This document shows, one piece after another, positions 10,306 to 30,802 of a DNA stretch of 64,000 nt. This DNA comes from Caldilineaceae bacterium (GTDB lineage: Bacteria > Chloroflexota > Anaerolineae > Caldilineales > Caldilineaceae): positions 62,001 to 126,000 of the forward strand of contig JAJEDJ010000030.1 of NCBI GenBank assembly GCA_022821545.1, written 5' to 3'. A program made the translations under genes and the position numbers. Numbering within the stretch: position 1 is the stretch's first letter; each line of letters opens with the position of its first letter. The notes beneath the pieces were generated by a model. The model did not search any database and was not told where the DNA came from. It saw only the letters and a program-made list of their open reading frames with translations.

Positions 10306-13300
10306 ATGCCCCGCATATTCGACAACATCGACAGCGACCTCCGCGACGCCCTGGCCGAGACCCTGCAACACGCCCACCGCGCCGACTTCTGCGTCGGTTA
10401 CTTCAACCTGCGCGGCTGGAGCTCCATCGACAAGCACATTGAACCCTGGCCCGGCGGCGAAGGCAACTGCTGCCGCCTCCTCGTCGGTATGCAGAACCTC
10501 CCCCACGAAGAGCTGCGCCGCGCCCGCAGCCTCGCCCCAGCCGAAGACCAGCTCGACAACCAGGCCGCGCTCCGTCTCAAAAACAGACTGGCCGCGGAGT
10601 TCCGCGAGCAGCTCACCTTCGGCGCGCCCTCCAACCGGGACGAAGCCGGCCTGCGCCGGCTGTCAAAGCAACTCAAGGCAGGCAAGGTCGTCGTAAAGCT
10701 CTTTCTCGCCCACCCGCTCCACGCCAAGCTCTACCTGCTGCACCGTAAAGATCCCATCAATCCCATCGTCGGCTACCTCGGCAGCAGCAACCTCACCCAG
10801 GCCGGGCTTTCCCGTCAGGGCGAACTGAACGTCGACGTCCTCGACCATGACGCCTGTAGCAAGCTCGCCGCCTGGTTCGAAAAGCGCTGGAACGACCGCT
10901 GGTGCATCGACATCTCCGCAGAGCTTGCCGCCATCATCGACGAAAGCTGGGCGCGCGAAGAGCTTATCCCTCCCTACCACATCTACGTCAAGATCGCCTA
11001 CCATCTCTCACAGGAGGCACGCGCCGGCCTTACCGATTTCCGCATTCCCTCCGACTTCGGCAATACCTTACTCGACTTCCAGACCGCCGCCGTCAAGATC
11101 GCCGCCCACCATCTCAACAAGCGTGGCGGCGTCCTCATCGGCGATGTCGTCGGGCTTGGCAAAACCCTGATGGCCACCGCCCTCGCCCGCATCTTCGAGG
11201 ACGACTACGGTCTGGAAACACTTATCATCTGCCCCAAAAATCTCGTCCCCATGTGGGAAAACTACCGCGACGAGTACCGCCTCCGCGCCCGCGTGCTCTC
11301 CATCAGCCGCGCCATCAATGAACTGCCAGACATGCGCCGCTACCGCCTCCTCGTCATCGACGAGAGCCACAACCTGCGCAACCGCGAGGGCCGTACCTAC
11401 CGCGCCATTCACGAGTACATCAGAGAGAACGACTGTAAGTGCATTCTCCTCACCGCCACGCCCTACAACAAGACCTACCAGGACCTCTCCAGCCAGCTCC
11501 GCCTCTTCGTGCCCGAACACGATGACCTCGGCATCCGTCCTGAACGCCTATTGGCCGAGATCGGTGAGATCGGGTTCATCCAGAAGCACCAGGCCCCGCT
11601 CCGCTCGCTCGCTGCTTTTGAACAGTCCGAGCACGCCGACGACTGGCGCGAGCTGATGCGCCTCTACCTCGTCCGCCGCACGCGCAGCTTTATTCAGCAG
11701 AACTACGCCCAGACCGACCCGGAAGACGGGCGCAAGTTTCTTACCTTCGAGGACGGCAGCCGCTCCTACTTTCCAGTGCGCGTGCCGCGCACCGCGTCCT
11801 TCGATATCGACCAACAGTACGCTCGTCTTTTTGCCGATGACGTCGTTGACGACATGAACGCCCTTGAGCTGCCCCGCTACGGCCTCGGCAACTTCGTCGC
11901 AGCCTCGCCCGCCGACCCGCCGACGCAAACCGAGACCCAAATTCTGGGCGACCTCTCCCGCGCCGGCAAACGGCTTATGGGCTTCTGCCGCACTAACCTT
12001 CTTAAGCGCATGGAGAGCAGCGGACATGCCTTTCTGCTCTCGCTTGAGCGCCATATCCTGCGTAACTTCGTCTTCCTCCATGCCATCGAGACCGGCCAGC
12101 CGCTCCCCATCGGCGCCACCGACGCCGGTATGTTGGATACCCAGTCCTACGACAAGGACGCCGACGCCGCCATCAGCAATATCTTTGACCAGGAAGAAGA
12201 AGACACTCCGGCCGATCCGGTCGCACCCGTCCTCCTACGCACCGAAGATGAATTTCGCCAGCGCGCTGCCCAGGTTTACGACAGTTTTACCTCGCGCTAC
12301 CGCCGTCGCTTCCGTTGGCTCAGCCCACATCTCTTCACCGACGCCCTGCACCAACACCTGCGCTCCGACGCCGACACCCTGCGCGCCGTCCTCGAAAGGT
12401 TCGGCCAGTGGGACTCCGCTCAGGACGCCAAACTCGCCGCGCTGCGGCAAATCCTTATGGAGACCCATCCCGGCGAAAAAGTCCTCGTCTTTACCCAGTT
12501 CGCCGACACCGTTCAATACCTGGAAGAGCACCTCAAGGACGGCGGCGTTGCGCATCTTGCCGCTGTGACAGGCGGTTCGACCGACCCGACGCAACTAGCC
12601 TCGCGCTTCAGCCCCGTTGCCAACGGCAAGCGTGCCCAGGTATCGGCCGAACAGGAGCTGCGCGTCCTCATCTCCACAGACGTGCTCAGCGAAGGCCAGA
12701 ATCTCCAGGACTGCGCCATCGTCATCAACTACGACCTGCCTTGGGCCATCATCCGCCTCATCCAGCGCGCCGGCCGCGTCGACCGCATCGGCCAGCAGGC
12801 GCGCGATATCCTCTGCTACTCCTTTCTCCCCGCCGAGGGCATCGAAAAGTTGATCCGCCTCCGCGCCCGTGTGCGCACTCGCCTCAACCAGAACGCCGAA
12901 GTCGTCGGCACCGATGAGGCCTTTTTCGAAGACGAAGACACCCGCGCCGTCCACGATCTTTACAACGAGCAGGCCGGCATCCTCGACGGCGACGACGATA
13001 CCGAAGTCGATCTCGCCTCCTTCGCTTACCAGATCTGGAACAACGCCACCGACGGCAACTCCGCCCTCAAGAAGGCGATCGAAGAGATGCCCGCCGTCGT
13101 CCACTCGTCCAAAGCCAACCAGCCGGTGCTGGCGCGGCCCGATGGCGCACTCGTCTACATGCGTACGGCCCAGGATCTCGACGCTCTCGTCTGGCTCGAC
13201 CGTGACGGCGGCAGCGTTACCGAGAGCCAGTTCGAGATACTGCGCGCGGCCCATTGCCGACCCGATACGCCCGCATTGGCCCGCCATGAGACGCACCATG

Positions 13301-13671
13301 ATCTGGTCCGCCAGGCCGCACAGCAGGTTGCCAGCCACGAAAAGCAGGTCGGCGGCCAGTTGGGCCGCCCATCCGGCGCCCGCTTCCGTACCTATGAACG
13401 TCTCAAGCGCTATGCCGAAACCGTAACTGGCCAGCTTATCTCTGAGCCGCTGCGTCGGGCGATCGACGATATCTACAGCCATCCCCTGCGCCAGACCGCG
13501 GTCGACACGCTCAACCGCCAACTGCGCAGCGGAATCTCCGACGACGATCTGGCCTATCTGGTCGTCGAACTGCGTGAGGACGACCGTCTTTGCATTGTCC
13601 ACGCCGAAGAGGGGCGCCGTGATCCAAACATTATCTGCTCAATGGGCCTCATCGGGCCGGAGGAAGATTGA
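10306..13671 (+). CDS. PLD-like domain fused to SNF2-family helicase (restriction/defence)
   Basis: 1121 residues. An N-terminal phospholipase-D-like domain (about 1-190) carries HAKLYLLH near residue 139 and GSSNLTQAGL. A superfamily 2 SNF2-type motor follows: Walker A VVGLGKTLMATALA (about 282-295), DESHNLRN (about 351), LLTATPYNKT, and C-terminal helicase motifs ISTDVLSEGQNLQ and QRAGRVDRIGQ. A charged helical tail ends the protein. The methylase starts 2 bases after its stop, so the pair is one translationally coupled operon. Such pairs act as ATP-dependent restriction systems; DISARM DrmD is a related helicase, but drmA, drmB and drmC are absent here. Third codon positions are strongly C-rich. 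Confidence 0.88.
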   Translation: MPRIFDNIDSDLRDALAETLQHAHRADFCVGYFNLRGWSSIDKHIEPWPGGEGNCCRLLVGMQNLPHEELRRARSLAPAEDQLDNQAALRLKNRLAAEFREQLTFGAPSNRDEAGLRRLSKQLKAGKVVVKLFLAHPLHAKLYLLHRKDPINPIVGYLGSSNLTQAGLSRQGELNVDVLDHDACSKLAAWFEKRWNDRWCIDISAELAAIIDESWAREELIPPYHIYVKIAYHLSQEARAGLTDFRIPSDFGNTLLDFQTAAVKIAAHHLNKRGGVLIGDVVGLGKTLMATALARIFEDDYGLETLIICPKNLVPMWENYRDEYRLRARVLSISRAINELPDMRRYRLLVIDESHNLRNREGRTYRAIHEYIRENDCKCILLTATPYNKTYQDLSSQLRLFVPEHDDLGIRPERLLAEIGEIGFIQKHQAPLRSLAAFEQSEHADDWRELMRLYLVRRTRSFIQQNYAQTDPEDGRKFLTFEDGSRSYFPVRVPRTASFDIDQQYARLFADDVVDDMNALELPRYGLGNFVAASPADPPTQTETQILGDLSRAGKRLMGFCRTNLLKRMESSGHAFLLSLERHILRNFVFLHAIETGQPLPIGATDAGMLDTQSYDKDADAAISNIFDQEEEDTPADPVAPVLLRTEDEFRQRAAQVYDSFTSRYRRRFRWLSPHLFTDALHQHLRSDADTLRAVLERFGQWDSAQDAKLAALRQILMETHPGEKVLVFTQFADTVQYLEEHLKDGGVAHLAAVTGGSTDPTQLASRFSPVANGKRAQVSAEQELRVLISTDVLSEGQNLQDCAIVINYDLPWAIIRLIQRAGRVDRIGQQARDILCYSFLPAEGIEKLIRLRARVRTRLNQNAEVVGTDEAFFEDEDTRAVHDLYNEQAGILDGDDDTEVDLASFAYQIWNNATDGNSALKKAIEEMPAVVHSSKANQPVLARPDGALVYMRTAQDLDALVWLDRDGGSVTESQFEILRAAHCRPDTPALARHETHHDLVRQAAQQVASHEKQVGGQLGRPSGARFRTYERLKRYAETVTGQLISEPLRRAIDDIYSHPLRQTAVDTLNRQLRSGISDDDLAYLVVELREDDRLCIVHAEEGRRDPNIICSMGLIGPEED

Positions 13672-13673
13672 CC

Positions 13674-16600
13674 ATGCCCACAACCCTCGACCGCGTTAAG
13701 GTCAAACAATACCTCGATGATTTCGATCTTCGCTCCCTCTTTACTCAGGAACTTGGCTGGGACTATGGCGGCAGCGACACCGAAGTTTCCGTCAAAGATC
13801 GCGCCTACCCCCTACAGGCTATAGCCCACAAGCGCGGCATGGTCGCCTACCAGTATCTCGCCCAGCCCGGCGAAGAGCTTCCCGACCATCCCACCCGCCA
13901 GCAGATCGAAAGAAGGGTCGCCAGGCAGGTGCGCGAGCATATCATTATCTTCGCCAATCACGACCGCACCACCCAGTACTGGCTCTGGGTCAAGCGCGAA
14001 CCGGGCAGGCCGGACCGCCCGCGCACCCATATCTACCGTTCCTACCAGAGCGGCGAACCCCTCATCCAGAAGTTGGAAAGGATTGTCTTCACACTCGAAG
14101 ACGAGGCTGACCTCTCGATCGTAGACGTCACAGGCCACGTACTCGCTGCCTTCGACGTCGAACAGGTCACCAAACGCTTCTACGACCGTTTCAAGAGCGA
14201 ACATCAGGACTTTCTTGACTTCATTGAGGGTATAGCGGAGGTGGCCGACCGCGAATGGTACGCCTCGCTGATGCTCAACCGCATGATGTTCATCTATTTC
14301 ATCCAAAAACGCGGCTTCCTCGACAACAACTCCAACTACCTGCGTGACCGCCTCCACACCGTGCGCCAGCAGCACGGAGCCGACAGGTTCGATGGCTTCT
14401 ACCGTCTCTTCCTGTTGAGCTTGTTCCACGAGGGGTTGGGTAAGCCCGAATCCGAACGTGACGCGGAATTGGTGGCTGAGCTCGGTCAGGTTCCATACCT
14501 CAACGGTGGCCTTTTCGACGTCCACGATCTGGAGCACAACTACCCGGACATCACTATTCCCGACGAAGCATTCGAGAAGATCTTCGCCTTCTTCGACGCC
14601 TATCAGTGGCATCTCGACGACCGACCGCTGCGCAACGATAACGAGATTAACCCCGACGTACTCGGCTACATCTTTGAAAAATACATCAACCAGAAGCAGA
14701 TGGGAGCCTACTACACCAAGGAGGACATCACAGGCTACATCAGCCGCAACACCATCATCCCCTTCCTCTTCGACCGGGCGAAGAAGGAGTGCTCAATCGC
14801 CTTCCAACCAGGCAAGGGCGTATGGCGACTGCTCCAGGAGGACCCCGACAGCTACTTCTACGCGGCCGTCCGTCACGGCATCACCTACGACATCCACAAC
14901 AACAAGGAATTGGCCGTCGTACAGGAGTTGCCGGCCGGCATCGCCGCCGGACTAGACGACGTCGCCCAGCGCGGCAGCTGGAACGAACCCGCCCCGAAAG
15001 AATACGCCCTCTCCACCGAGACCTGGCGCGAGCATGTCGCCCGCCGCCGTCGATACGAAGAGATCCATGCCAAGCTGGAGGCCGGCGAGGTCACGTCGAT
15101 CAACGACCTCATCACCTACAACCTCAATATCGAAAAGTTCGCCCTGGACGTAATAGCCAACAGCGAAGGGTCCGAACTGGTGAGCGCCTTCTGGAAAGCC
15201 CTTGCCAGCGTCTCCGTACTCGACCCCACCTGCGGCTCCGGCGCCTTCCTCTTCGCTGCCCTCAACATCCTCGAACCCCTCTACTCCGCCTGCCTTGAAG
15301 CCATGGAAGGCTTTCTCGACGACCTGGAACGCTCGCGGCGCAAGCACAGCCCCCGGAAGCTGAGCAATTTCAAGGCGGTGATAAAGGAAGTTGACAAGCA
15401 CGCCAGCAAGGAATACTTCATTCTCAAGTCGATCATCATCAGCAATCTCTACGGCGTCGACATCATGGAAGAGGCCGTAGAGATCTGCAAGCTGCGCCTC
15501 TTCCTCAAGCTCGTCGCCCAGCTTGAGACCTACGACCAGATCGAGCCGCTCCCCGACATCGACTTTAATGTCCGCGCCGGCAACACCCTCGTAGGATTCA
15601 CGACGCTACAGGAAATAAAGGACGCCGCTGAAAAAACACCGGTCGCACGCGGCAGTGAGACACCGGCCACACAAGACAGAATGATCTATGCCGAGGAAGA
15701 AGCCAAACTGGACCGCATTGACGAGGACGCCGAACTGGCCGCCCGCTCCTTTAGGAAGTTCCGCGAAATGCAGACCGATTATGGTATGGACGCCGGCGAC
15801 TTTGCCGATGCAAAGCTCGATCTGCGCGAGCGACTGGACGCGTTGCGCGCCGAACTCGACCGCTATCTGGCCAGCGAATACAGCGTCCGCGAGGGGGATG
15901 ATGCGGCATTCAGGCAGTGGCGGGCCAGCCACCAGCCCTTTCACTGGTTCGTCGAGTTTTACGGCATCATGCACAACGGCGGTTTCGATGTGATCGTCGG
16001 CAATCCACCGTATGTTTCGACAAAGAAAATCCCATACAGAATGCTGGGGCCGTCAGACACAAAGATTCCCGACATCTATGGTCACATTTTGCTGAAGTCT
16101 CTGGCGCTCACGAAACGCGGCGGACGAACTGGAATGATTATTCCCCTTTCCATTACCTTTAGTGGTGGCTTCAAAACTATTCGTCAAGAGCTATGCGACT
16201 GGGGAGAGGCTTGGTTCTCGTCTTATGACAACATTCCGGCAGCACTGTTTGCGGGCGTCAGCCAACGTTGCACGATCTGGATTGGCAGCCGCGTTCCATC
16301 TGAGACGTTTGTTGCTCCTATGTACCGATGGCGCGCCGTCTCTCGAAAACATCTCTTGCCAAATCTGTCGTACGTTCCAGTGAGAAATCGTCTAGATGTT
16401 GGAGCATCAGGACTGCCAAAGCTCGCAAGCGGCTTCCAAGAAGCCACGTTAAGTGCCATTCTTGCTTCAAGTCCTTCGAGATTTAGAACAGTTATTGACA
16501 CAGGCAAGGGCACACACGCATTGGGTTTCTCGCAGACGGCCCGAAACTTTGTTTCGGTTTTTCTCGAAGATCCGCCAAACATTGATGCAACTTCGCTCAT

Positions 16601-17195
16601 CAATGTTGCTTCTTCTGTAAACGGAAACTTGAGCTTGAACAACAGCTCGGACAGATTTGCGGCTCTGGCTGCCACGGCAGGGGAACTTTTTTTCTGGTAT
16701 TGGATTGTTCGGGGCGATGGATTTCATGTAACCAGCTTCTTGGTTCGTGATTATCTCACTACATTGGAACATCTATCTCCTGCTCACTATAGGCTACTCA
16801 CACGACTTGGCCATTTGCTCCATACTGAACGAAACAGGTGGTTAGTATTCAAGAAGAACGCAGGGAAATATGTAGGTAACTACAACTATCGAGGAGCTTT
16901 CCGCATAACGAGGAGAGCCGATCTCTTGATTATGAATGGCTTGTCCAGGAATCGAGAAGAGGCTCTTGATATCTTCGATTATGTTCAGCGAATACTGGCA
17001 ATCAACAAACATGCCGGGGAAAAGGGAATCCCAGCGGAAGTAAAAGCTATGTTTCCCGCCCCGCAATCGGAATCTGACAGCGCTTCTCAGGTCTTCACGG
17101 AGACTGATTCGAAGTTAAGCAAGGGATATCGCTTCTTGCAAGAAGAGTTGGATTTCATTTTTAACTACGACGTCAAGTATGTTACTGGACAGTGA
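13674..17195 (+). CDS. Eco57I-like N6-adenine DNA methylase, possibly a type IIG-like RM protein
   Basis: 1173 residues from ATG at 13674, with GGAGGAAG 7 bases upstream. The N-terminal 300 residues (LFTQELGWDYGGSD, AIAHKRGMVAYQY, EHIIIFANHD) are those of Eco57I-type restriction-methylation proteins, followed by NRMMFIYFIQKRGFLDNN and GAYYTKEDITGYI. AdoMet motif I is LDPTCGSGAFLFAAL (near residue 520) and catalytic motif IV is NPPY at about 777-780. The C-terminal 400 residues should hold the target recognition domain. Codon usage shifts sharply right at NPPY (about 15998): upstream is C-ending and GC-rich, downstream is much richer in A and T, as if the recognition half came from another source. 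It pairs with the helicase at 10306. Confidence 0.88.
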   Translation: MPTTLDRVKVKQYLDDFDLRSLFTQELGWDYGGSDTEVSVKDRAYPLQAIAHKRGMVAYQYLAQPGEELPDHPTRQQIERRVARQVREHIIIFANHDRTTQYWLWVKREPGRPDRPRTHIYRSYQSGEPLIQKLERIVFTLEDEADLSIVDVTGHVLAAFDVEQVTKRFYDRFKSEHQDFLDFIEGIAEVADREWYASLMLNRMMFIYFIQKRGFLDNNSNYLRDRLHTVRQQHGADRFDGFYRLFLLSLFHEGLGKPESERDAELVAELGQVPYLNGGLFDVHDLEHNYPDITIPDEAFEKIFAFFDAYQWHLDDRPLRNDNEINPDVLGYIFEKYINQKQMGAYYTKEDITGYISRNTIIPFLFDRAKKECSIAFQPGKGVWRLLQEDPDSYFYAAVRHGITYDIHNNKELAVVQELPAGIAAGLDDVAQRGSWNEPAPKEYALSTETWREHVARRRRYEEIHAKLEAGEVTSINDLITYNLNIEKFALDVIANSEGSELVSAFWKALASVSVLDPTCGSGAFLFAALNILEPLYSACLEAMEGFLDDLERSRRKHSPRKLSNFKAVIKEVDKHASKEYFILKSIIISNLYGVDIMEEAVEICKLRLFLKLVAQLETYDQIEPLPDIDFNVRAGNTLVGFTTLQEIKDAAEKTPVARGSETPATQDRMIYAEEEAKLDRIDEDAELAARSFRKFREMQTDYGMDAGDFADAKLDLRERLDALRAELDRYLASEYSVREGDDAAFRQWRASHQPFHWFVEFYGIMHNGGFDVIVGNPPYVSTKKIPYRMLGPSDTKIPDIYGHILLKSLALTKRGGRTGMIIPLSITFSGGFKTIRQELCDWGEAWFSSYDNIPAALFAGVSQRCTIWIGSRVPSETFVAPMYRWRAVSRKHLLPNLSYVPVRNRLDVGASGLPKLASGFQEATLSAILASSPSRFRTVIDTGKGTHALGFSQTARNFVSVFLEDPPNIDATSLINVASSVNGNLSLNNSSDRFAALAATAGELFFWYWIVRGDGFHVTSFLVRDYLTTLEHLSPAHYRLLTRLGHLLHTERNRWLVFKKNAGKYVGNYNYRGAFRITRRADLLIMNGLSRNREEALDIFDYVQRILAINKHAGEKGIPAEVKAMFPAPQSESDSASQVFTETDSKLSKGYRFLQEELDFIFNYDVKYVTGQ

Positions 17196-18170: not shown

Positions 18171-18250
18171 GTGAGCCCCAAACTTTGGACCACATGATGG
18201 GAAAAATAGAGTGCATCCAGACGGGTGAACCCGGCCCTGATTAGAACGGG
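18171..18250 (-). repeat. Degenerate end of an IS3-like element
   Basis: GCCCCAAACTTTGGACCAC at about 18174 and the next 60 bases align with the end at 27676 (shared words TGGACCACA, GGGAAAA, GCATCCAGACGGGTG against ACATCCAGATGGGTG). It is one terminus without any transposase, between the DUF4238 gene and the reverse transcriptase. Confidence 0.6.
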
Positions 18251-18309
18251 TAGGGTCGCTATTCCGGCTTGAAGTTCACTCGATAAATCCTTTCTTCACC
18301 CTGAAATCA

Positions 18310-21300
18310 CTATAGGCCTGCTGGCGGGCTTTTCCAAACCGGATCCTTTTCCCGTGGACCGTCTCTCTTGACAAGCTGTCGACGGTCTAACACCTTGCCT
18401 ATGTCCTCAATCTCAAAAAATGCAATCGATGCCTGTGGCTGCCCATGTAAGTGAAAAATCTGTCTCTTGAACTGATCGTGAACAGGCCAATAGGCATTGC
18501 TGCCTCCGTACAGTCCATTGTTTACGACGACTACATGTTGGAACATATGATAATTTAGCGCATGCGCCATCTGATCAAAGGTGCCGACATCTTTGTTGAA
18601 GGAGGGGATCGCGAATACATCTGATTCGTACCGCAGATCGGCAGCCAAATTGAGGTCGGTGGCGTCATAGCAAACAGCCGCCGACAGCCACAGTGGTCTC
18701 ATATCGGTCTCGCTCCATGGGTAGCCAATCAACCACTGGCATGGTCGAAAGCCATCCACATCATATTTTTTCTCCGTGGGAGCAAGATGGAGTTTACCCT
18801 GCCGCCGAGTCAGGATCTGTAGTCCCTGCTCTTCGGGCTGCTTGGGCAGGATCCATAATGCAGAATTAACTGGTTGTCTATCATGAAGTAACTTCTGATA
18901 GGTAAGACCGGCCAAAACAATCGACTTGAATTTCTGCGCGAATGGTATCAAATGTGTTTTCACGTCATTCGGATGGACGGCTAACTCTGGCAAAATAAGC
19001 CAGTCAAGGCGGCCGTCGTCCTCTAAATGTGTCTTGCGCAGGTAGAGCATTTTCTTCACCGCTTCAAGTGCGGCTGATAGGTGGTTGCGGTGTCTTCTGC
19101 GAATCTCAGGTTGTGAAAAAGTAATGTCACAGTTGTCGAAATCCTTGTCCTGTGGCACGACCGTTTGCACTACACAACCGCGTAAAGATCGAGTCTTGGC
19201 TCTTTGTGTGGGCCAATCCGCAATCATGGGCATCATAAGAGTTTGGGTCGCAGCCCCCCTCTGTTTTTCAAGAGATTCAATCCGATCCTTGATTTTCCGC
19301 AATGATTTACTGATCCCCTCTTTGATCCACTCAAAGTCAGCAGGCGTTCTGCAACCGGGCCAGCGGAGAAGCGTCAGCAGAAATCGTTCCATCCAGTCGG
19401 TAATGGGTAGCCAGTCATCACCGAATGCCGACTGACCGTTGTATAGGCCATAGATCCGTTGGTGCCAGTGACTCCGAACTGGCCTGTAGGTCGCGTGATG
19501 GACTTTCCAATACTCGGGTCCTACGAAGGCGGTAAAATCTGGCCGCCGGGTAAGGATGAAACGTAAGAGAAACCCCAACTGGAACCGCCAACGGTCATCT
19601 GGTTCGCACCACTCTGGAGGCTGATAAAGCGCACTCGTGGGAAGAGGTTGACTCACAGACACATCTAACTCCGAAACGCTAACGATGTCACCATCGTCTT
19701 CCAATCTTACACTTACACTCCCAGGAGGGATTACTTTGTCCTGAAGTTCTTTCTGGAGACGAAGTCTCTTCAAAAACGAAACCGCGAAGCGTAGAATAGA
19801 GAGCTCATTTCTCAATGGGCTCACAGCAGCCGTGCCCAATACTGTCTCCGCAAGACTCCGAAGGCCAGTTCCTGTCACACGGTTCTCAAGGCACAAACTG
19901 TCTTTGACGCCTGCCGATAAACCTTCGTCAAAGTTTAGGTCAGCATTTCTGAGTTCAAGGGCGAACGACGGATCCATCTCTGCAATTGCGTTTTTGCGTT
20001 CTGCCGTCAATCCCCAACGAATCAATTCAGCGGATTTGTCGGCATCCAATATCGCGCGGCGAGCAACTACCGATAGCGTCGCGAATTCCGAACTGCTGAG
20101 GTTGCTACTCTCCCCCCGAAGAAACAGTATAAGCTTGTGGTACTCCATTAACTCTGCTTTTCGACTTGCGCGCTTATTCGGTGCTGCGGCAGGGGCAAAG
20201 CAGGCAAGGAAAAGAAGCGCTTGCTGTCGGAGATACCACGGGATAGTCGTCAGCTTGGGCGAAGCTAGTTTTGCCGCTTCTGCACACAGGATTTCCCTGT
20301 ACCTTCTGGGGTCGGCGACTTCTGGGAGGCAATCCTTGTCGTCTACGATACTGGTTTCCGTTGCGCCTCTTCGCAAGACCTCGGAGAGACAGTACCAAGC
20401 GACTTGTCTCTTTTTCCGGCTCTGTTGGCCTTCACTGGTGTAAATGTAGGGTCTCAACAACCTGAGGACTTCCTTCAAAATCTCGGGATCGGGCCAAATG
20501 TCTAGTCCGACCCATAAGAGCCGAACATTCGAGGGATCTTCTATCCATCGCTCGATTATTCGGAGAGCAAATTCCTTTGCGTCTTCATCAAGTTCCTGCC
20601 GACTATGGGGTCCTACGACATTTAAGAAGAGTTCAGACTCGCTAGGAATGTCTTCAGATTCAGCATCAGCTTTTTCAGGCTCGCTGGCGGACCGTCTGTC
20701 TTCAAAGAGAGGTCTGATGAAGCGATAAGTCGTGCGAAAGCGGTTTGCCGCAAACCTAGCAACCCTCTCTTCACGCACATCGGATTTCGGAGAGAAGTCC
20801 CAACCGCTATCAGATTGCGTTCGGTCCAAATCCTGCTGTGACCGAACCAGACCTTGGATCATATCCAGGAGAACCCACCCTTCGGCAATACCAAATGGAC
20901 CGGACACTGCTTCCTGAATACGCTTCATCCTTTCACTTTGCCGCACAATTGGTCGTTGGGACGCACCGAACTCCACAGCCTCTGTCTTCTTTTCGGATAT
21001 TAAGAGCCCTTTAGCCTCGCTGTTTAGTAAGCTTTGAAGCCACTTCTCTGCGGCGATTCTGCATTCATCTGCATCACGATCTGATGTTACGACTAAACGC
21101 AAATCGTCGACATATCGGCAGGCATCTTCAAGGCCAATTCCGCTTTCGATATTTAGTTCGAACTTGCTCCTGAGCTGTTGGTCGAAGGACAAAAGAACCA
21201 CATTGGCAAAAAACCCCGCGGCAACCAAGCCTTGAGGAAGCGCCACTCGCGTGAAATCATCAAGGTCCGAATGCTTGGCGTATTTCTCGATGTCATCCTC

Positions 21301-22059
21301 GTCGTTTTCGTCCCACTTCCAAGTCAGCACCCTTTTTGCAAAATCATAGAATTCCGGATCCTCGTCACTTTCTTTCAATTGATCAAGAGCATACATGAGC
21401 ATTTCTGGACGTACCCGGTCGTAAAATTTGTCTAAGTCTGCCTCAACAATGATGACTCGTTTCCCATCCTTCGATTCTATCGACTCCGCCACCGTATTGG
21501 GCCGGGAAATGAACGAACGATAGTCTTGATAGTAGGATCGATAGAGCTTTGATGAACCCCATCGATGGTGCAGCTCGTGTTCTTCCCTGTCACAAAACAG
21601 TCGATTGCCGTAGGAAACCACCCTTTTTCGAAAATCGGACTTCTCAAATCTTAGCCGTGGATCCTGTTGTGCTGTCTCGACTCCATTTGCTAGGCATAAC
21701 ATCAGTGCGGTTGCAACGACCTGATCGCGCAGGCTCACGTGAGCAAGTGGCCGCATTTGAATTTTGTCGTCACCGCTTTCAACTGGCTCCCATTTTTTGT
21801 CCTTTGACACACACCACTTCTGGCTTTTGGGTGCCAGCACCAAGCGAAGAGGATCGCTCTCCCACTGCTCGGGAACTTCTAGACATCTCATGATTTCGGC
21901 AATGAACTTCGGAAGGTCGGACGCAGCCCTATCGAGCGCTAAAGTGTCAGAATACCAGTTATGATATCGAATGTAGTTCGAGGTTTTCTTCCAGGCTTGG
22001 ACAAGAACGTACTCTTGGCGCAAACAGTCTAAGTTCGGTTTGAGAATTTCGTACGTCAT
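18310..22059 (-). CDS. Defence-associated reverse transcriptase with C-terminal nitrilase domain (DRT type 1/UG1 architecture)
   Basis: 1249 residues from ATG at 22059 (AGGAAG just upstream; a TTG at 22122 would add 21 residues). The RT domain lies in the first 400 residues: motif A VEADLDKFYD (D about 208), then LPQGLVAAGFF, and YVDD at 316-319. A long middle region (about 430-960), mostly helical and of no recognised family, is followed by a nitrilase-fold domain with the full E-K-C triad: E1025 in LILPELAVHP, K1089 in GKLHLAP, C1130 in SAAVCYDATD. RT plus nitrilase is the DRT1/UG1 anti-phage arrangement. It is a single gene, transcribed against its neighbours, with IS relics on both sides. 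Whether it uses a non-coding template RNA cannot be seen. Confidence 0.9.
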   Translation of the reverse strand: MTYEILKPNLDCLRQEYVLVQAWKKTSNYIRYHNWYSDTLALDRAASDLPKFIAEIMRCLEVPEQWESDPLRLVLAPKSQKWCVSKDKKWEPVESGDDKIQMRPLAHVSLRDQVVATALMLCLANGVETAQQDPRLRFEKSDFRKRVVSYGNRLFCDREEHELHHRWGSSKLYRSYYQDYRSFISRPNTVAESIESKDGKRVIIVEADLDKFYDRVRPEMLMYALDQLKESDEDPEFYDFAKRVLTWKWDENDEDDIEKYAKHSDLDDFTRVALPQGLVAAGFFANVVLLSFDQQLRSKFELNIESGIGLEDACRYVDDLRLVVTSDRDADECRIAAEKWLQSLLNSEAKGLLISEKKTEAVEFGASQRPIVRQSERMKRIQEAVSGPFGIAEGWVLLDMIQGLVRSQQDLDRTQSDSGWDFSPKSDVREERVARFAANRFRTTYRFIRPLFEDRRSASEPEKADAESEDIPSESELFLNVVGPHSRQELDEDAKEFALRIIERWIEDPSNVRLLWVGLDIWPDPEILKEVLRLLRPYIYTSEGQQSRKKRQVAWYCLSEVLRRGATETSIVDDKDCLPEVADPRRYREILCAEAAKLASPKLTTIPWYLRQQALLFLACFAPAAAPNKRASRKAELMEYHKLILFLRGESSNLSSSEFATLSVVARRAILDADKSAELIRWGLTAERKNAIAEMDPSFALELRNADLNFDEGLSAGVKDSLCLENRVTGTGLRSLAETVLGTAAVSPLRNELSILRFAVSFLKRLRLQKELQDKVIPPGSVSVRLEDDGDIVSVSELDVSVSQPLPTSALYQPPEWCEPDDRWRFQLGFLLRFILTRRPDFTAFVGPEYWKVHHATYRPVRSHWHQRIYGLYNGQSAFGDDWLPITDWMERFLLTLLRWPGCRTPADFEWIKEGISKSLRKIKDRIESLEKQRGAATQTLMMPMIADWPTQRAKTRSLRGCVVQTVVPQDKDFDNCDITFSQPEIRRRHRNHLSAALEAVKKMLYLRKTHLEDDGRLDWLILPELAVHPNDVKTHLIPFAQKFKSIVLAGLTYQKLLHDRQPVNSALWILPKQPEEQGLQILTRRQGKLHLAPTEKKYDVDGFRPCQWLIGYPWSETDMRPLWLSAAVCYDATDLNLAADLRYESDVFAIPSFNKDVGTFDQMAHALNYHMFQHVVVVNNGLYGGSNAYWPVHDQFKRQIFHLHGQPQASIAFFEIEDIGKVLDRRQLVKRDGPREKDPVWKSPPAGL

Positions 22060-22796: not shown

Positions 22797-24503
22797 ATGC
22801 AGAGAGAGTTTGATGTTGCCTTGTCCTTCGCAGGAGAAGATCGACAATACGCAAGGGAGTTAGCGGATCTTCTCAAGTCTGGAGGATATGAGCCCTTTTA
22901 CGACGACTACAGCCAAGCGGATCTTTGGGGCAAAAATCTGTACGACCACCTATCATCGGTTTACAAGGATAAGGCGCGCTTCTGCGTAATGTTTCTGTCA
23001 AGAAACTATGCAAGGAAGTTGTGGACGCGACACGAACGCGAAAGTGCTCAGGCGCGGGCGTTTGAGGAAAACAGGGAGTATATACTTCCTGTGCGGTTGG
23101 ACGATACTGAGATCCCAGGAATCTTGTCGACGATTGGGTATCTTGATCTGCGTGAGGTGTCAATTAAGGAAGTCTATCAGGCATTGGAACAGAAGCTGTC
23201 GGGCACGCTTCAAACACAGGTCGCCGTTGCCACTTCCATCACCACTAAGCGCGAATCCACGACTCACTGTTGTCGGAACTGTCATTTCTTAGCCAAATAC
23301 GCGCTTACTGATGGGGGGCAGGAGCACAGATGGACATGGGACGCAAAAGAGCGATCCGACCTTGAAGTCAAAGAGCACTATGGCGTTGAGTGTGCCAAAG
23401 GCATTTGGAGCGCAGGGATTGACCCTGAAATCAATTCACGTCTCGAGGAAGAATTACTGAAGGAGAGAAATGAGTGCTTCTTTCTTGAATATGACGAGGC
23501 TAACAAAAGTATGACGTTCGATGCAGCATCCGAGCTTATTCAGTTGAGGGGGGAAGAATCCCATCAAATTCGAGAAGCCACGGTACCGGTGGAGAAAGCA
23601 TCCGAGCCCCGTCCACTTTCTGAGGAATCTGCTGTCACAAGTCTAAAACGTTTTCTGGCGGAACCAAGATACCGCATTCAACTTGCAGACCTGATTGATG
23701 AGACTGTCGAGCGTGTGATAGAGGAAACGTCAGGACACGACTTTGATGCAAACCACCCGCGTCCGACAACAGAAACTGTTACAGCACGCATTCGCGCATA
23801 TGAGGAGGTCTGCTCTACGCTGATCGAGATGGCGGTTGTGGGGGGCCGTTGGGCAGAACAACAACATTGTGAATTCTGGCATCGAGCCTTGCGGCGGCTC
23901 TCTATGGTTCTTCGCACTGGCGGGATGCCCGCATGGCTAGATATGCAGCTTTATCCAGGCATGCTTCTCCTGTATGCTTTGGGGCTTGGTGCCGTTGAGG
24001 CGGACCGGCTTGACTTTCTCGGCCGCATATTTCCAGCCGCGGTTCGTCGTGAGAACAACGAAAGGATGACCGTTGTACAAGCCTTCGCGCCTTATCAACG
24101 ATTTGAGCCCGGAGGACCGATGACGATGTTGGAGGGAATGGAGAATTATCAGCTTCCTCTCAACGAATGGATGTTCAAAACCTTGCGGCAGTTCACCAAC
24201 GGATTGATTCCTGATGCAGATCGATACCGCCTTAACTTCGTCAAACTTGAGATACTCATGTCAATGAACAGCGTATACCGACGCAGTCCAGCTTGGCAGG
24301 GTCAAACCAGGGGCATTTTCTTGTACTACTTTGAGACCGCTGGGGTTATCCTCCAAGAGATCACAGATTCCATTGCCGACCACCGCGACGAGTCGTCTTT
24401 CGTCAGGGCAGATATCTTCGGTCAGACTTCTGAAGATTGTATGCAGCGTATCGGTGACTTGAAGCAGTGGATTTCTAAAGAAGTCATTAGACGGTTTTCT
24501 TGA
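22797..24503 (+). CDS. TIR-domain protein with a Cys-containing middle and unknown C-terminal domain
   Basis: 568 residues. Residues 1-135 form a TIR domain: FDVALSFAGEDRQYARELADLL, YDDYSQADLWGKN, RFCVMFLSRNYARKLWTRHERESA (candidate catalytic Glu at about 80) and ILPVRLDD. Prokaryotic TIR domains usually cleave NAD+ or make signal nucleotides. Residues 155-215 hold a short Cys/His cluster (HCCRNCHF, then VECAKGIW), maybe metal binding. The C-terminal 300 residues are helical and match nothing I know; they probably sense the trigger. The Pycsar pair begins 174 bases downstream on the same strand, so TIR may be a further effector of that system. No cyclic-nucleotide-binding domain is visible. 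Confidence 0.82.
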   Translation: MQREFDVALSFAGEDRQYARELADLLKSGGYEPFYDDYSQADLWGKNLYDHLSSVYKDKARFCVMFLSRNYARKLWTRHERESAQARAFEENREYILPVRLDDTEIPGILSTIGYLDLREVSIKEVYQALEQKLSGTLQTQVAVATSITTKRESTTHCCRNCHFLAKYALTDGGQEHRWTWDAKERSDLEVKEHYGVECAKGIWSAGIDPEINSRLEEELLKERNECFFLEYDEANKSMTFDAASELIQLRGEESHQIREATVPVEKASEPRPLSEESAVTSLKRFLAEPRYRIQLADLIDETVERVIEETSGHDFDANHPRPTTETVTARIRAYEEVCSTLIEMAVVGGRWAEQQHCEFWHRALRRLSMVLRTGGMPAWLDMQLYPGMLLLYALGLGAVEADRLDFLGRIFPAAVRRENNERMTVVQAFAPYQRFEPGGPMTMLEGMENYQLPLNEWMFKTLRQFTNGLIPDADRYRLNFVKLEILMSMNSVYRRSPAWQGQTRGIFLYYFETAGVILQEITDSIADHRDESSFVRADIFGQTSEDCMQRIGDLKQWISKEVIRRFS

Positions 24504-24677: not shown

Positions 24678-25514
24678 TTGCTATTGGACGAGGTCTTGGC
24701 GACTCTGACTTCACAGCTGGATGACCAAGCCGAATTAGGCGTGAAAATAAAGCAGCAGACGGAAGTACCGTCGGAGGGGCCGATCGACAAGGGCCTGTGG
24801 TTTTATATGCAGAATGTCACCGCTGTGTTTGTCGATCTGAAGGGTTCCACTGAATTGAGCGCTTACAGAAGCCCGAAACCTTCAGCTTTTGCATATACCT
24901 ACTTCGTAAGGGCAATGGTCGTGATATTCGAACGTTTCGGTTCAAAGTATGTCGATATACAAGGCGACGGCGTCTTTGGCCTTTTCAGCGGTCCGCAGTC
25001 TGAATTTTACGCCGTGGCCAGCGCGATCACGGCAAGAACCCAGATTGAACGCGACATTGATGCCCGCTTCGAGAAGGATACGTCGTCCGAGTGGAAAATG
25101 ACGGCCGGAATCGGCATTGATAGGGGGCCGCTGCTTGTCCGACGATTGGGCCTAAGGGGCACCAAGCAGAATGAAGTGTGGGCGGGTAAACCTGTAAACA
25201 TGGCGGCGAAACTCAGTTCGGTGGCATGTTCCAACCAGGTGGTGGTTTCGGAGAGAGTTTTCTCTCAGTTCCGAAAAGCTTCCCCTATCCGGCGACGGGC
25301 GCTCCTCTGGGGCTGCGGTTGCTGTAAGGAAATCCAGGGAGACGGCCTTGGCATAACCATCGGCGAGACGAAATGTCTGTGGACGAAAGAGCCGGCGCCC
25401 GCGGAGATGGGTCTGGATTTCGATCAACTCTACAGATTGAAATCAAAATGGTGCTGCGTACACGGCGCCGAGCTCTGCGAGACGATAGTGACCGGCTGCA
25501 GACCTGAAGCATGA
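24678..25514 (+). CDS. Pycsar-type class III nucleotide cyclase (PycC-like)
   Basis: 278 residues from a TTG start with GAGGTG 10 bases upstream. Class III cyclase fold: first metal aspartate D53 in FVDLKGSTELSAY, second D97 in DIQGDGVFGLF, then TAGIGIDRGPLLVRRLG and the clade-typical VWAGKPVNMAAKLSS. The C-terminal extension has paired cysteines (WGCGCCKE, then SKWCCVHGAELC) as in Pycsar cyclases. These enzymes make cCMP or cUMP on phage infection to trigger the neighbouring effector. The stop overlaps the effector start (ATGA at 25511), which supports the pairing strongly. The base made cannot be decided from sequence by eye. Confidence 0.88.
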   Translation: MLLDEVLATLTSQLDDQAELGVKIKQQTEVPSEGPIDKGLWFYMQNVTAVFVDLKGSTELSAYRSPKPSAFAYTYFVRAMVVIFERFGSKYVDIQGDGVFGLFSGPQSEFYAVASAITARTQIERDIDARFEKDTSSEWKMTAGIGIDRGPLLVRRLGLRGTKQNEVWAGKPVNMAAKLSSVACSNQVVVSERVFSQFRKASPIRRRALLWGCGCCKEIQGDGLGITIGETKCLWTKEPAPAEMGLDFDQLYRLKSKWCCVHGAELCETIVTGCRPEA

Positions 25515-26026
25515 TTATGGAAGAACGTCTGAACTCCCATTACGAATCGTTGTCGCGCTGCATTGCGTTTACCAGGACGGCCGACGCCAAAGCGGCGCCC
25601 GTCCTGGCGCTCCAAATCGCGGTCCTGGGTGCATTGGCGGCAAGATTCGAGAAGCTTATTCCCGCTCTTTTGGTCGAGTCATGGTCTTTTGAGAGAGCGC
25701 TTCTCTGGGTCGTTCTCGGCATTTACCTTGTCTTCATGGGCGCCGCCGTTGCCATGGCAGCCTGGGTCTACATGCCGACGCACCCGCGAACCGGCCAATC
25801 CCTCATCTACTTCGAAGACATCGCGGCGATGCGAAGCGAGGAGTTTGTGAAGCGTTCCAAGGAAATGTCTTCAGACATGATTGAGGAACAGCTTCTCAGC
25901 CAAATCCACATTGTTTCCCAGATAGCCAGCGCCAAAATGCGCAGGGTTCAGTGGGCTTTCTGGTTGAGTATGCCGTCGCTCGCCCTGGGTCTCACTCTTC
26001 TGGCCTGGGGGAGCGTCCGACTCTGA
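25511..26026 (+). CDS. Pycsar transmembrane effector (PycTM-like, DUF5706)
   Basis: 171 residues. Start ATG at 25511 overlaps the cyclase stop; a second ATG at 25517 is possible. Hydrophobic stretches lie at about 30-55 (APVLALQIAVLGALAARF), 62-88 (ALLWVVLGIYLVFMGAAVAMAA) and 146-168 (WAFWLSMPSLALGLTLLAWG). Between the second and third is a soluble segment with SLIYFEDIAAM. This matches the DUF5706/PycTM effectors that bind the cyclic pyrimidine signal and damage the inner membrane, stopping phage spread by cell death. Composition agrees with the cyclase rather than the backbone. Confidence 0.87.
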   Translation: MIMEERLNSHYESLSRCIAFTRTADAKAAPVLALQIAVLGALAARFEKLIPALLVESWSFERALLWVVLGIYLVFMGAAVAMAAWVYMPTHPRTGQSLIYFEDIAAMRSEEFVKRSKEMSSDMIEEQLLSQIHIVSQIASAKMRRVQWAFWLSMPSLALGLTLLAWGSVRL

Positions 26027-26664
26027 CTATGCAATGCACCGCGAAAAACGCCTTTATCCAACACAGCTTAACGGCACTACGCGCTCTGATCAGCGCCGGC
26101 TACAACCGTCCGAATGCACCTTATTTTTCCCATTTCGTGGTCTAGGAGTCGTTGACATTTCAATGAGGCAGGCAAGATCCGCGCAATCGAAAGCGGGGAA
26201 GTGGGGGGTCAGACGATACCTGACCGTGCGCCAGGGGCCCAGAACCCTATCGTTTCTAATGTAGATCCCAAACGGGTCCACGAGCTTGCGAGTTTCATTG
26301 GAGCGAGTGAGACGCCTGCCATGTCAGACGTCAGCCCGTGCGAAAACTCTTGGTTTCAAATTGAACGCACATGAATTTCCTTTCATCATATAATCTCTAT
26401 ATCATTGAAAATGTGCGTTGTTCTGTCTCTTGAAAATTTTTTCTCGTAAACGCTCGTAAACGCTCGTGGATCGCTCGTAAACGCTCGTACGAGCGTTTAC
26501 CTGTTCCCTACGAGTTCCCGTACGAGCGTCCGACCTGTGTTCAGGGAGCGCCCAGCCCAGCTTTTCCTGCAGTTACACTGAAACAGTGTCTCTTCAGCCC
26601 GTTTTGAAACCCTGCCTTTTCACCGAACGCAGCCGGAAGAGCTTGCCTTCTTCGACACTGAGCT
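26027..26664. other. Intergenic stretch after the Pycsar pair
   Basis: No convincing gene. Contains the CGCTCGTAAA repeat/palindrome block described separately and an AT-rich part near 26365-26440 that could carry a promoter. It ends at the left end of the IS3-like element. Confidence 0.5.
26441..26530. repeat. CGCTCGTAAA direct repeats with a 24-bp palindrome
   Basis: Five 10-base units with core CTCGT start at 26441, 26451, 26461, 26472 and 26482, close to helical phase. The last two form a perfect 24-bp palindrome at 26477-26500 with half-site GTAAACGCTCGT. An inverted copy TACGAGCG recurs at 26521-26528. The layout resembles an operator, iteron cluster or recombinase site. Its owner is unclear. 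Confidence 0.7.
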
Positions 26665-27110
26665 TGGCCCCAAAAACTGGACCACCAGCTAAGGTGTATA
26701 ATGGAGCAATTCACCAAGCCTGTGGAGGGGCAGAACGATGGTCAAGAAACAGCGGCGACACACAGCGGCCTTCAAGTTCCGGGTTACGCTGGAAGGCAGC
26801 AAGACGATCAGCCAGTTATCGAGTGAACATGAGATTCATGCCAACCTGATACGGGCCTGGAAACGGCAGTTGCAGGCAGACGGGCCCCGGGTCTTCGCCA
26901 CGAACGGCGAACGTAAACAGCGGGAGCAGGAGGCGCAGGAAGCAGAACTCTATGAACAGATTGGGCGACTCAAGATGGAACTTGAGTGGCTGAAAAAAAA
27001 GCTGCCCGCTTCGGTCAGGGAGAGACGGTGCATGGTCGATAGCCAGCATGCGGTCCTGAGTGTACGACGGCAGTGTGAGTTGCTGGGGCTGAATCGGGCC
27101 TCCTTCTACT
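26665..27110 (+). mobile_element. Truncated IS3-family element (left end, orfA and start of orfB)
   Basis: Left end GGCCCCAAAAACTGGACCAC at 26666, a short leader, then a transposase frame from ATG 26738 with GGAGGGG upstream. The homology to IS3-family protein breaks at about 27110, where the reading frame runs into an unrelated toxin gene. The right end and nearly all of orfB, including the DDE residues, are missing, so it cannot transpose by itself. This is the best-preserved member of the degenerate family scattered through the island. Confidence 0.82.
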
Positions 27111-27148
27111 ATACAGACCAGGCTATCGTGTCTACTTCGGTGACTTAG
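26738..27148 (+). pseudogene. IS3-family transposase fragment (OrfA plus first residues of OrfB)
   Basis: 136 codons. MVKKQRRHTAAFKFRVTLEG is the OrfA helix-turn-helix opening, followed by HEIHANLIRAWKRQL and the leucine-zipper-like ELYEQIGRLKMELEWLKKKL. An A8 run at 26993-27000 is the usual frameshift site, but here the OrfB start (SVRRQCELLGLNRASFYY) is in the same frame as OrfA, suggesting an indel or no need to shift. The last 12 residues are read out of frame from the toxin gene. No DDE domain remains. Confidence 0.8.
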
Positions 27149-29291: not shown

Positions 29292-29990
29292 ATGTCAGAT
29301 CACGTCCGGGAGATAAGAGAGCAACGGCGCGTGAAGGAAATCAAGTGGATCGTGCGGGATCGCAAGATAGACGTGCTGTTCCATTTCACCCGGCTTGAAA
29401 ATCTGACTGGTATTCTGCAGAATGGCTTGCTGAGTCGGACAACCTTAAGTGAGCGGCACATACCGTTTTGCGTAGTCGACCACGAGCGACTGGACGGCTG
29501 TCAGGACGCAGTCTGTTTGAGCGTTAGTTTTCCAAATTACATCTTGTTCTATAGCAAGAGAATGAATTATTTTAGAGAACAGCAGGTGAGTCTTTCTCAG
29601 TGGGTTGTCCTGCTCTTGGATGTAAGAATACTTTGGGAATTGGAGTGCGAATTCTGCCAGGTGAATGCGGCGAGTAATGTTGAGAGGAGAATTCCTCAGT
29701 GGGAAAGACGAATGCCAGAGGCCTTGGAGAAAATGTTCAATGACTTTGAAGATATCAGGCGTTACGATCTGAACCTGCCTCGCGGCTTTCCTACGAATCC
29801 ACAAGCGGAAGTCTTAGTCTTTGGGAATATACCTGCAGTGTACGTAAAGCAAGTACATTTTTGGGACTACTTTACTTTTACTAACTGGCAGGAACATGTG
29901 CGTTCGTTAACGGCAGCCTGCGTTTGCCACAATCCCGATTATTTCAGCGCGAGAATGGACTATGAGGTCTGGAGTGGCCGGTCGACATGA
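29292..29990 (+). CDS. darT: DarT-family DNA ADP-ribosyltransferase toxin (DarT1-like)
   Basis: 232 residues, AGAGGTAAGTC before ATG. The DarT (DUF4433) fold uses NAD+ to ADP-ribosylate single-stranded DNA. Visible are LFHFTRLENLTGILQNGLLSR at 29-49 with the HFT pocket, the substrate-loop region ISVSFPNYILFYSKR-like (77-90), and the catalytic Glu E173 in NPQAEVLVFGNIP. The partner downstream is a NADAR-type hydrolase rather than a macrodomain DarG, which places it with DarT1, whose target is guanosine rather than thymidine. The pair works as a toxin-antitoxin system with anti-phage action. Only 77 bases separate the genes. Confidence 0.87.
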   Translation: MSDHVREIREQRRVKEIKWIVRDRKIDVLFHFTRLENLTGILQNGLLSRTTLSERHIPFCVVDHERLDGCQDAVCLSVSFPNYILFYSKRMNYFREQQVSLSQWVVLLLDVRILWELECEFCQVNAASNVERRIPQWERRMPEALEKMFNDFEDIRRYDLNLPRGFPTNPQAEVLVFGNIPAVYVKQVHFWDYFTFTNWQEHVRSLTAACVCHNPDYFSARMDYEVWSGRST

Positions 29991-30067
29991 GAGTTCGTAG
30001 TCAGCAGATTCCTACCTTGCCCGACCTACGATTCTGATGACGATGAAGCTGGCTAATTGGAGACAAA

Positions 30068-30802
30068 ATGGCAAGACGCCCTGTTTTCATCCCCGACATC
30101 AGTGGATTTCCCTACGTCAGTTCCATTGACATTGAGTTTCAATGGTTCGCTGGCTTCTCGAAAACGCAAGCGCAAAAGTCTATCGCCTCTTTGCACGAAG
30201 CTGCTAAGAAAATGGAGATATACCCAATTCTGGAGGTATCCGGAAAGTCGGAGTTTGCCTTGGGAGTCTCCCTGAGTGCATTCGACCTCTCACTAAGTAA
30301 CCAGGGTTCAAAAACGATCAGCGTTGAATGCGCCTATCAGGGAAGCAAAGTGTTTGAGGACGGTGGCCCATTTCACGATCTCTATACTGTCTCAAGCCGG
30401 GAAGCCAAGACCGACCTCAGGCTGCGTAACTCGGGAGAGGTGACCGGTTTCGATCTCTTGGGTGAAAGATTCCCAATTGAGCCTCAGACAGCATTTTATA
30501 ACTGGTTGTATATGACAGCACTCAGTCAAATGGAGCCCCCTGTAATACAGGAACTGAACCAGTTCAAAGGGTTCTCGGACATCGCTTTCAATCCAAAACG
30601 CTCGATAAACTGCCAGGCACGTGCTGTAGCAGTTTATGTCGCCTTGCACAACACTGTACCAGACGAGCTGCAAACTCTGGGCGATTGGGATTCGTATATT
30701 GAGCTAGTGACAGGCGCGAAGAACGGTTCGCCGGATGAGCCAGCTCCGCGCCAACTTAATCTGTCATTTGAAGACGTACCCGATGCGCACCCGCCGCCAT
30801 AG
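30068..30802 (+). CDS. DarT1-associated NADAR antitoxin
   Basis: 244 residues, GGAGAC before ATG. The order RRPVFIPD, IEFQWFAGFSKTQAQKSIASLH, ILEVSGKSEFALGVSLSAFDL, CAYQGSKVFEDGGPFHDLY, REAKTDLRLRNSG, FPIEPQTAFYNWLYMTAL and FNPKRSINCQARAVAVYVAL matches the NADAR-like antitoxins linked to DarT1, which remove ADP-ribose from guanosine in DNA and so neutralise the toxin. All these blocks are intact. It follows darT on the same strand and the two should be cotranscribed. Confidence 0.85.
   Translation: MARRPVFIPDISGFPYVSSIDIEFQWFAGFSKTQAQKSIASLHEAAKKMEIYPILEVSGKSEFALGVSLSAFDLSLSNQGSKTISVECAYQGSKVFEDGGPFHDLYTVSSREAKTDLRLRNSGEVTGFDLLGERFPIEPQTAFYNWLYMTALSQMEPPVIQELNQFKGFSDIAFNPKRSINCQARAVAVYVALHNTVPDELQTLGDWDSYIELVTGAKNGSPDEPAPRQLNLSFEDVPDAHPPP

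What the first reader, a model, noticed from the sequence alone, without database searches (positions are those of the whole stretch)
18310..22059. RT-nitrilase (DRT1/UG1-type) in a probable Chloroflexota background
YVDD and motif A are intact and the C-terminal nitrilase keeps E1025, K1089 and C1130, so both enzymes look active. A 500-residue middle part has no known match by eye. Most studied members are from Proteobacteria; this one would be a divergent representative. No template RNA is obvious in the flanks.
Basis: partly seen in the sequence, partly recalled or inferred. Interest (0 to 1): 0.7.

Follow-up and report, generated by a model that had tools for sequence, protein, structure and literature searches.

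The report
Chloroflexota DRT1 anti-phage reverse transcriptase
This gene is an intact member of a known bacterial anti-virus enzyme family (DRT1, a reverse transcriptase fused to a nitrilase), found here in an uncultured Chloroflexota bacterium; the mechanism and structure of the family were published in 2026, so this is an ordinary new member.

Summary
Confirmed, and ordinary. The ORF is real but lies on the minus strand (ATG at 22059, stop at 18310; 1249 aa). It matches the Drt1a model end to end (1262.6 bits) and the solved DRT1 filament 9YFD (E 2.8e-128; profile E 2.5e-177 through the middle and nitrilase parts). Motif A D208, YVDD 316-319, E1025, K1089, E1096 and C1130 are intact. So are features that the 2026 mechanism paper (PMC13275509) showed to matter: a priming-loop serine (S386, 74 of 75 homologues) and the C-terminal lid K1243/A1247. 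The '500-residue part without a match' is the DRT1 alpha-helical repeat domain. No template RNA is needed: DRT1 makes protein-primed, template-free DNA. The host is a Caldilineaceae (Chloroflexota), as guessed. The protein belongs to a multi-phylum DRT1 clade (56 of 75 rows) separate from the one that resembles 9YFD; drt1b was seen only in the latter. It is under purifying selection (dN/dS 0.125), low in GC for the genome, and sits in a defence island, so probably horizontally acquired. New member of a known kind.

The parts
18310..22059 (-). drt1 (drt1a): RT / helical-repeat / nitrilase fusion protein, 1249 aa
   Evidence: ORF; Drt1a HMM 1262.6 bits full length; 9YFD homologue; dN/dS 0.125 against the 85% relative
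20905..22059 (-). N-terminal extension and RT domain (residues 1-385)
   Evidence: Pfam RVT_1 E 1.2e-10, residues 193-363; aligned to 9YFD 8-461
21418..21444 (-). RT motif A (residues 206-214, contains D208)
   Evidence: D208 invariant in 75 homologues
21103..21114 (-). RT catalytic YVDD (residues 316-319; D318/D319 match D324/D325 of the solved DRT1)
   Evidence: invariant in 75 homologues; alignment to 9YFD
20902..20904 (-). S386, predicted protein-priming serine (QEAVSGPFG)
   Evidence: S in 74 of 75 homologues; S402 of 9YFD lies in the same loop, two residues further on (PMC13275509)
19210..20901 (-). alpha-helical repeat domain (residues 387-950)
   Evidence: AlphaFold2 model, mostly helices; homologous to 9YFD by profile
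18313..19209 (-). nitrilase (CN-hydrolase) domain (residues 951-1249)
   Evidence: structure match to amidases Z 23; 9YFD E 8.3e-53
18985..18987 (-). nitrilase E1025
   Evidence: invariant in 75
18793..18795 (-). nitrilase K1089
   Evidence: invariant in 75
18772..18774 (-). E1096, probable fourth residue of the nitrilase tetrad
   Evidence: among the most conserved columns
18670..18672 (-). nitrilase nucleophile C1130 (C1116 in the solved DRT1)
   Evidence: C in 74 of 75
18319..18333 (-). C-terminal lid motif K1243-S-P-P-A1247 (K1219/A1223 of 9YFD)
   Evidence: K in 72 and A in 72 of 75; aligned to 9YFD; K1219A and A1223F strongly reduce defence in the studied DRT1
18172..18261 (+). relic of a transposon end in the 3' flank; not part of the defence gene
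   Evidence: repeat copies in the window and genome

Best explanation
A stand-alone DRT1 (UG1, class 3 UG/Abi) anti-phage system in a Caldilineaceae bacterium. By homology to the studied DRT1, the RT domain adds nucleotides to its own serine (predicted S386) without a template, giving short A-rich single-stranded DNA adducts. These hold the protein as tetramers, stacked into filaments in which swapped C-terminal tails (lid K1243-A1247) cover the nitrilase active site (E1025, K1089, E1096, C1130). Phage infection (in the model system needing a Dda-type helicase) releases the lid; the nitrilase then acts on a still unknown cell metabolite and the cell aborts the infection. Shown here: gene, domains, catalytic, priming-loop and lid residues, nitrilase fold, purifying selection. 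Inferred from the homologue: adduct, filament, trigger and abortive infection.
For: Full-length Drt1a HMM match; homology to 9YFD over RT, middle and nitrilase; catalytic residues conserved; S386 in 74 of 75 homologues; K1243 and A1247 at the positions whose mutation impairs defence in the studied DRT1; confident model with nitrilase fold; dN/dS 0.125 overall, 0.066 in the nitrilase; defence-island context with RM, TIR, Pycsar and DarT1-NADAR genes; no drt1b or conserved RNA found; mechanism paper PMC13275509.
Against: Only about 30% identity to 9YFD-type DRT1, on the other side of the deepest fork of the tree. The predicted primer S386 is two residues before the aligned S402, in a loop unresolved in 9YFD. 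The tail between the nitrilase body and the lid is about 10 residues longer than in 9YFD, so domain swapping and filament geometry may differ. The trigger (Dda) was identified only in E. coli with T4. No activity was measured here.
Confidence: 0.87

Rival explanations
1. DRT1 by descent, but its clade works differently in a key step (another priming residue, other oligomer, or another trigger).
For: Deep split between the two DRT1 clades; shifted priming serine and longer C-terminal arm; in four clade members a RecD/UvrD-like helicase gene (PDC-S68) directly follows drt1.
Against: All residues tested that matter in the studied DRT1 are conserved across both clades; domain order is the same; PDC-S68 is absent at the window locus.
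Confidence: 0.1
2. An RNA-templated retron or class 2 DRT-like system with a hidden template RNA in the flanks.
For: 113 nt of 5' and about 143 nt of 3' flank are shared with the 85% relative.
Against: No Rfam match; no unusual folding (z -1.6, -1.2, +1.0); no flank similarity to the 64% relative although the gene aligns; the 3' shared part is a transposon-end relic; the homologue is template-free.
Confidence: 0.02
3. A decayed, non-functional gene carried on a mobile relic.
For: Transposon-end relics on both sides.
Against: Intact 1249-aa frame, all catalytic residues, dN/dS 0.125.
Confidence: 0.01

Closest known systems
DRT1 of PDB 9YFD (Neville et al. 2026, PMC13275509)
   Same: Same domain order end to end; same RT and nitrilase catalytic residues; serine in the priming loop; C-terminal lid K..PA; works without drt1b
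   Different: About 30% identity; priming serine two residues earlier in the alignment; C-terminal arm about 10 residues longer; different DRT1 clade; Chloroflexota host
UG1 RT-nitrilase in PADLOC (Drt1a PDLC03745)
   Same: 1262.6 bits over residues 5-1249
   Different: Nothing notable
DRT1 of other Caldilineaceae (L030 = OX638330.1, L013 = JAJDXQ010000019.1)
   Same: 85% and 64% identical over the full length
   Different: Different genomic neighbours
UG5 RT-nitrilase (class 3, DRT5)
   Same: RT plus nitrilase; template-free synthesis according to the DRT1 paper
   Different: Mainly the C-terminal nitrilase part matches (126.7 bits, best stretch residues 1014-1217)

Membership tests
DRT1 / UG1 (class 3 UG/Abi RT) | Full-length match to the Drt1a family model, better than to any other UG class | tested here: met
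   1262.6 bits, residues 5-1249; next class UG5-nitrilase 126.7
DRT1 / UG1 (class 3 UG/Abi RT) | RT active site with motif A Asp and YVDD | tested here: met
   D208, YVDD 316-319, invariant in 75 homologues
DRT1 / UG1 (class 3 UG/Abi RT) | C-terminal nitrilase fold with E-K-E-C residues | tested here: met
   E1025, K1089, E1096, C1130; model aligns to amidases Z 23, rmsd 2.7, 238 residues
DRT1 / UG1 (class 3 UG/Abi RT) | Helical repeat domain between RT and nitrilase | tested here: met
   AlphaFold2 model; profile match to 9YFD 455-1227
DRT1 / UG1 (class 3 UG/Abi RT) | Conserved priming serine | tested here: met
   S386, 74 of 75 homologues; two residues before 9YFD S402 in the alignment
DRT1 / UG1 (class 3 UG/Abi RT) | Conserved C-terminal lid (K1219, A1223 of 9YFD) | tested here: met
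   K1243, A1247
DRT1 / UG1 (class 3 UG/Abi RT) | Covalent template-free DNA adduct, filament, phage-triggered abortive infection | not testable with these tools
   Needs biochemistry and phage assays
DRT1 / UG1 (class 3 UG/Abi RT) | drt1b membrane protein (optional: about 18% of loci according to the paper, not a defining feature) | tested here: inconclusive
   No match in the genome, but the control genomes did not ring either; no gene stands in its place, the next gene being convergent. Seen only in plasmid loci L010-L012.
Class 2 DRT / retron (RNA-templated) | Conserved noncoding RNA next to the RT | tested here: not met
   No Rfam hit, no conserved flank in the 64% relative, no unusual folding

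The most novel reading that the evidence does not exclude
The large environmental DRT1 clade to which this protein belongs is regulated differently from the solved DRT1, e.g. with a longer swapped tail and, in some members, a dedicated RecD/UvrD-type helicase gene (PDC-S68) directly downstream of drt1, which would tie in with the helicase requirement for triggering.
Probability: 0.1. Interest if true: 0.45.

Novelty: new member of a known kind. Interest (0 to 1): 0.2.

Why it matters
It extends experimentally explained DRT1 to Chloroflexota with the functional residues conserved, and the alignment shows the priming-loop serine and C-terminal lid to be near-universal across two deep clades spanning many phyla, which supports the published mechanism as general. 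It changes no concept. The nitrilase substrate and the full trigger stay open; a distant homologue may help by showing which pocket residues never change.

Tried and rejected
Template RNA in the flanks: Rfam at gathering and permissive thresholds, folding z-scores and comparison with the 85% and 64% relatives, all negative. DRT1 carried by phages: no relative in phage records or, with single-protein patterns that find close relatives only, in viral contigs (the second was an accidental repeat). DRT1 as passenger of one transposon: transposon-end relics lie at 18172 and 22223 but are not a proper inverted pair, so not claimed. The structure search did not list 9YFD; the fold library stops at 2026-04-08, so its absence means nothing. 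UG5-nitrilase was considered and rejected on HMM score. Alignment A1 was too diverse to scan with; A2 worked. No sigma-70-like promoter was found upstream, which says little.

Full report
OBSERVATION. The frame at 18310-22059 is real but on the minus strand: ATG at 22059, stop ending at 18310, 1249 residues. The protein matches Drt1a over its whole length with 1262.6 bits; the next class, UG5-nitrilase, reaches 126.7 bits, mainly with its nitrilase part. The gene is under purifying selection: dN/dS 0.125 against the 85% relative, 0.066 in the nitrilase part.

HOST. The genus-mates G015 and G008 carry 85% and 64% identical copies. Their contigs have the same lengths and match lengths as records OX638330.1 and JAJDXQ010000019.1, titled Caldilineaceae, a family of Chloroflexota.

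WHAT IT IS. The solved DRT1 filament, PDB 9YFD, is the only PDB sequence that matches (E 2.8e-128). A profile of residues 385-1249 from 53 homologues aligns continuously to 9YFD residues 455-1227 with E 2.5e-177. So the 500-residue middle part, said to have no match, is the helical repeat domain of DRT1. An AlphaFold2 model of residues 385-1249 (pLDDT 86.3, pTM 0.87) shows helices followed by a nitrilase fold that aligns with amidases at Z 23, rmsd 2.7 over 238 residues.

MECHANISM. PMC13275509 showed that DRT1 primes DNA synthesis from its own S402 without a template, forms tetramers and filaments held by the DNA adducts, and keeps its nitrilase shut by swapped C-terminal tails. Mutation of D324/D325, S402 or C1116 abolishes defence, K1219A and A1223F reduce it as much as tail deletion, and T4 escapes by losing its Dda helicase. 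I tested whether these residues exist here, over 75 full-length homologues. D208, D318, D319, E1025 and K1089 are invariant. C1130 is in 74 of 75 (exception L050). S386 is in 74 of 75; the exception, L012, has the 9YFD-like arrangement in which the serine comes two residues later. K1243 and A1247 are each in 72 of 75. The loop that holds S402 is unresolved in 9YFD, so a shift of two residues is no obstacle, but that S386 is the primer remains a prediction. Adduct, filament and trigger are inferred from the homologue.

PHYLOGENY. A tree of 75 full-length proteins splits into two parts, drawn from a midpoint root: 56 rows with the window, from Chloroflexota, Acidobacteriota, Gemmatimonadota, Rhodothermota, Pseudomonadota, Myxococcota and others; and 19 rows with the Gammaproteobacteria, Paenibacillus and the 9YFD-like plasmid protein L012. 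9YFD itself is not a row in the tree; its side is judged by L012, which shares its priming-loop and tail sequence. The window groups with the Caldilineaceae copies (100), then with a set of 22 rows (100). It is thus typical of a large environmental clade. Differences that I could see: arm length before the lid (25 residues here, about 15 in 9YFD; mostly 20 in clade I, 17 in clade II), and drt1b, confirmed by HMM only in clade II loci L010-L012. Neither changes membership.

FLANKS. No Rfam family, no notable folding. Against the 85% relative, similarity extends 113 nt upstream and about 143 nt downstream; against the 64% relative it stops inside the gene. The downstream stretch holds a relic of a transposon end, with copies elsewhere in the window and genome. 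There is no sign of a conserved template RNA, and by the known mechanism none is needed.

SURROUNDINGS. The gene lies in a defence island: an HKD/SNF2 helicase and type IIG restriction enzyme (10306-17195), a TIR protein (22797-24503), Pycsar PycC and PycTM (24678-26026) and a DarT1-NADAR pair (29292-30802). GC is 0.50 against about 0.60 for household genes nearby, and the neighbours differ in the relatives, as expected of a horizontally moved defence gene.

VERDICT. It is an intact new member of a solved family. Interest 0.2.

Noticed in passing
L017:9776-13534, L053:7992-11750, L022:9768-13505, L020:9746-13561: A 1250-aa RecD/UvrD-like helicase gene (PADLOC candidate PDC-S68) follows drt1 directly (4-nt overlap or about 10-13 nt gap, same strand) in four loci of the window's DRT1 clade, with truncated remnants in L064 and perhaps L034. 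Striking because a phage helicase (Dda) is needed to trigger DRT1.
   Followed up: partly
contig G000:C29:54052-54510, about 8 kb before the window (L008:601-2325 -): A second defence RT, class UG36 (557.9 bits), with a 310-aa upstream partner gene that matches part of the UG35 model.
   Followed up: partly
window 10306-30802: Dense defence island: HKD+SNF2 helicase, type IIG RM, DUF4238, DRT1, TIR/PDC-S65, Pycsar pair, DarT1-NADAR.
   Followed up: partly
window 18172, 22223, 26069-26142, 26664, 27675, 28012(-): Scattered copies of a transposon end (TGGNCCCCAAANNNTGGACCAC) around an IS3-type orfA-like remnant (26738-27148, HTH_Tnp_1); the one at 18172 marks the end of similarity downstream of drt1 in the 85% relative.
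   Followed up: partly
window 26443-26489: Short tandem repeat of CTCGTAAACG (4.6 copies) next to its inverse CGAGCGTTTAC.
   Followed up: no
L050 (JAAXGT010000061.1): DRT1 homologue with Gly aligned at the nitrilase nucleophile position; near a contig end, so possibly an artefact.
   Followed up: no
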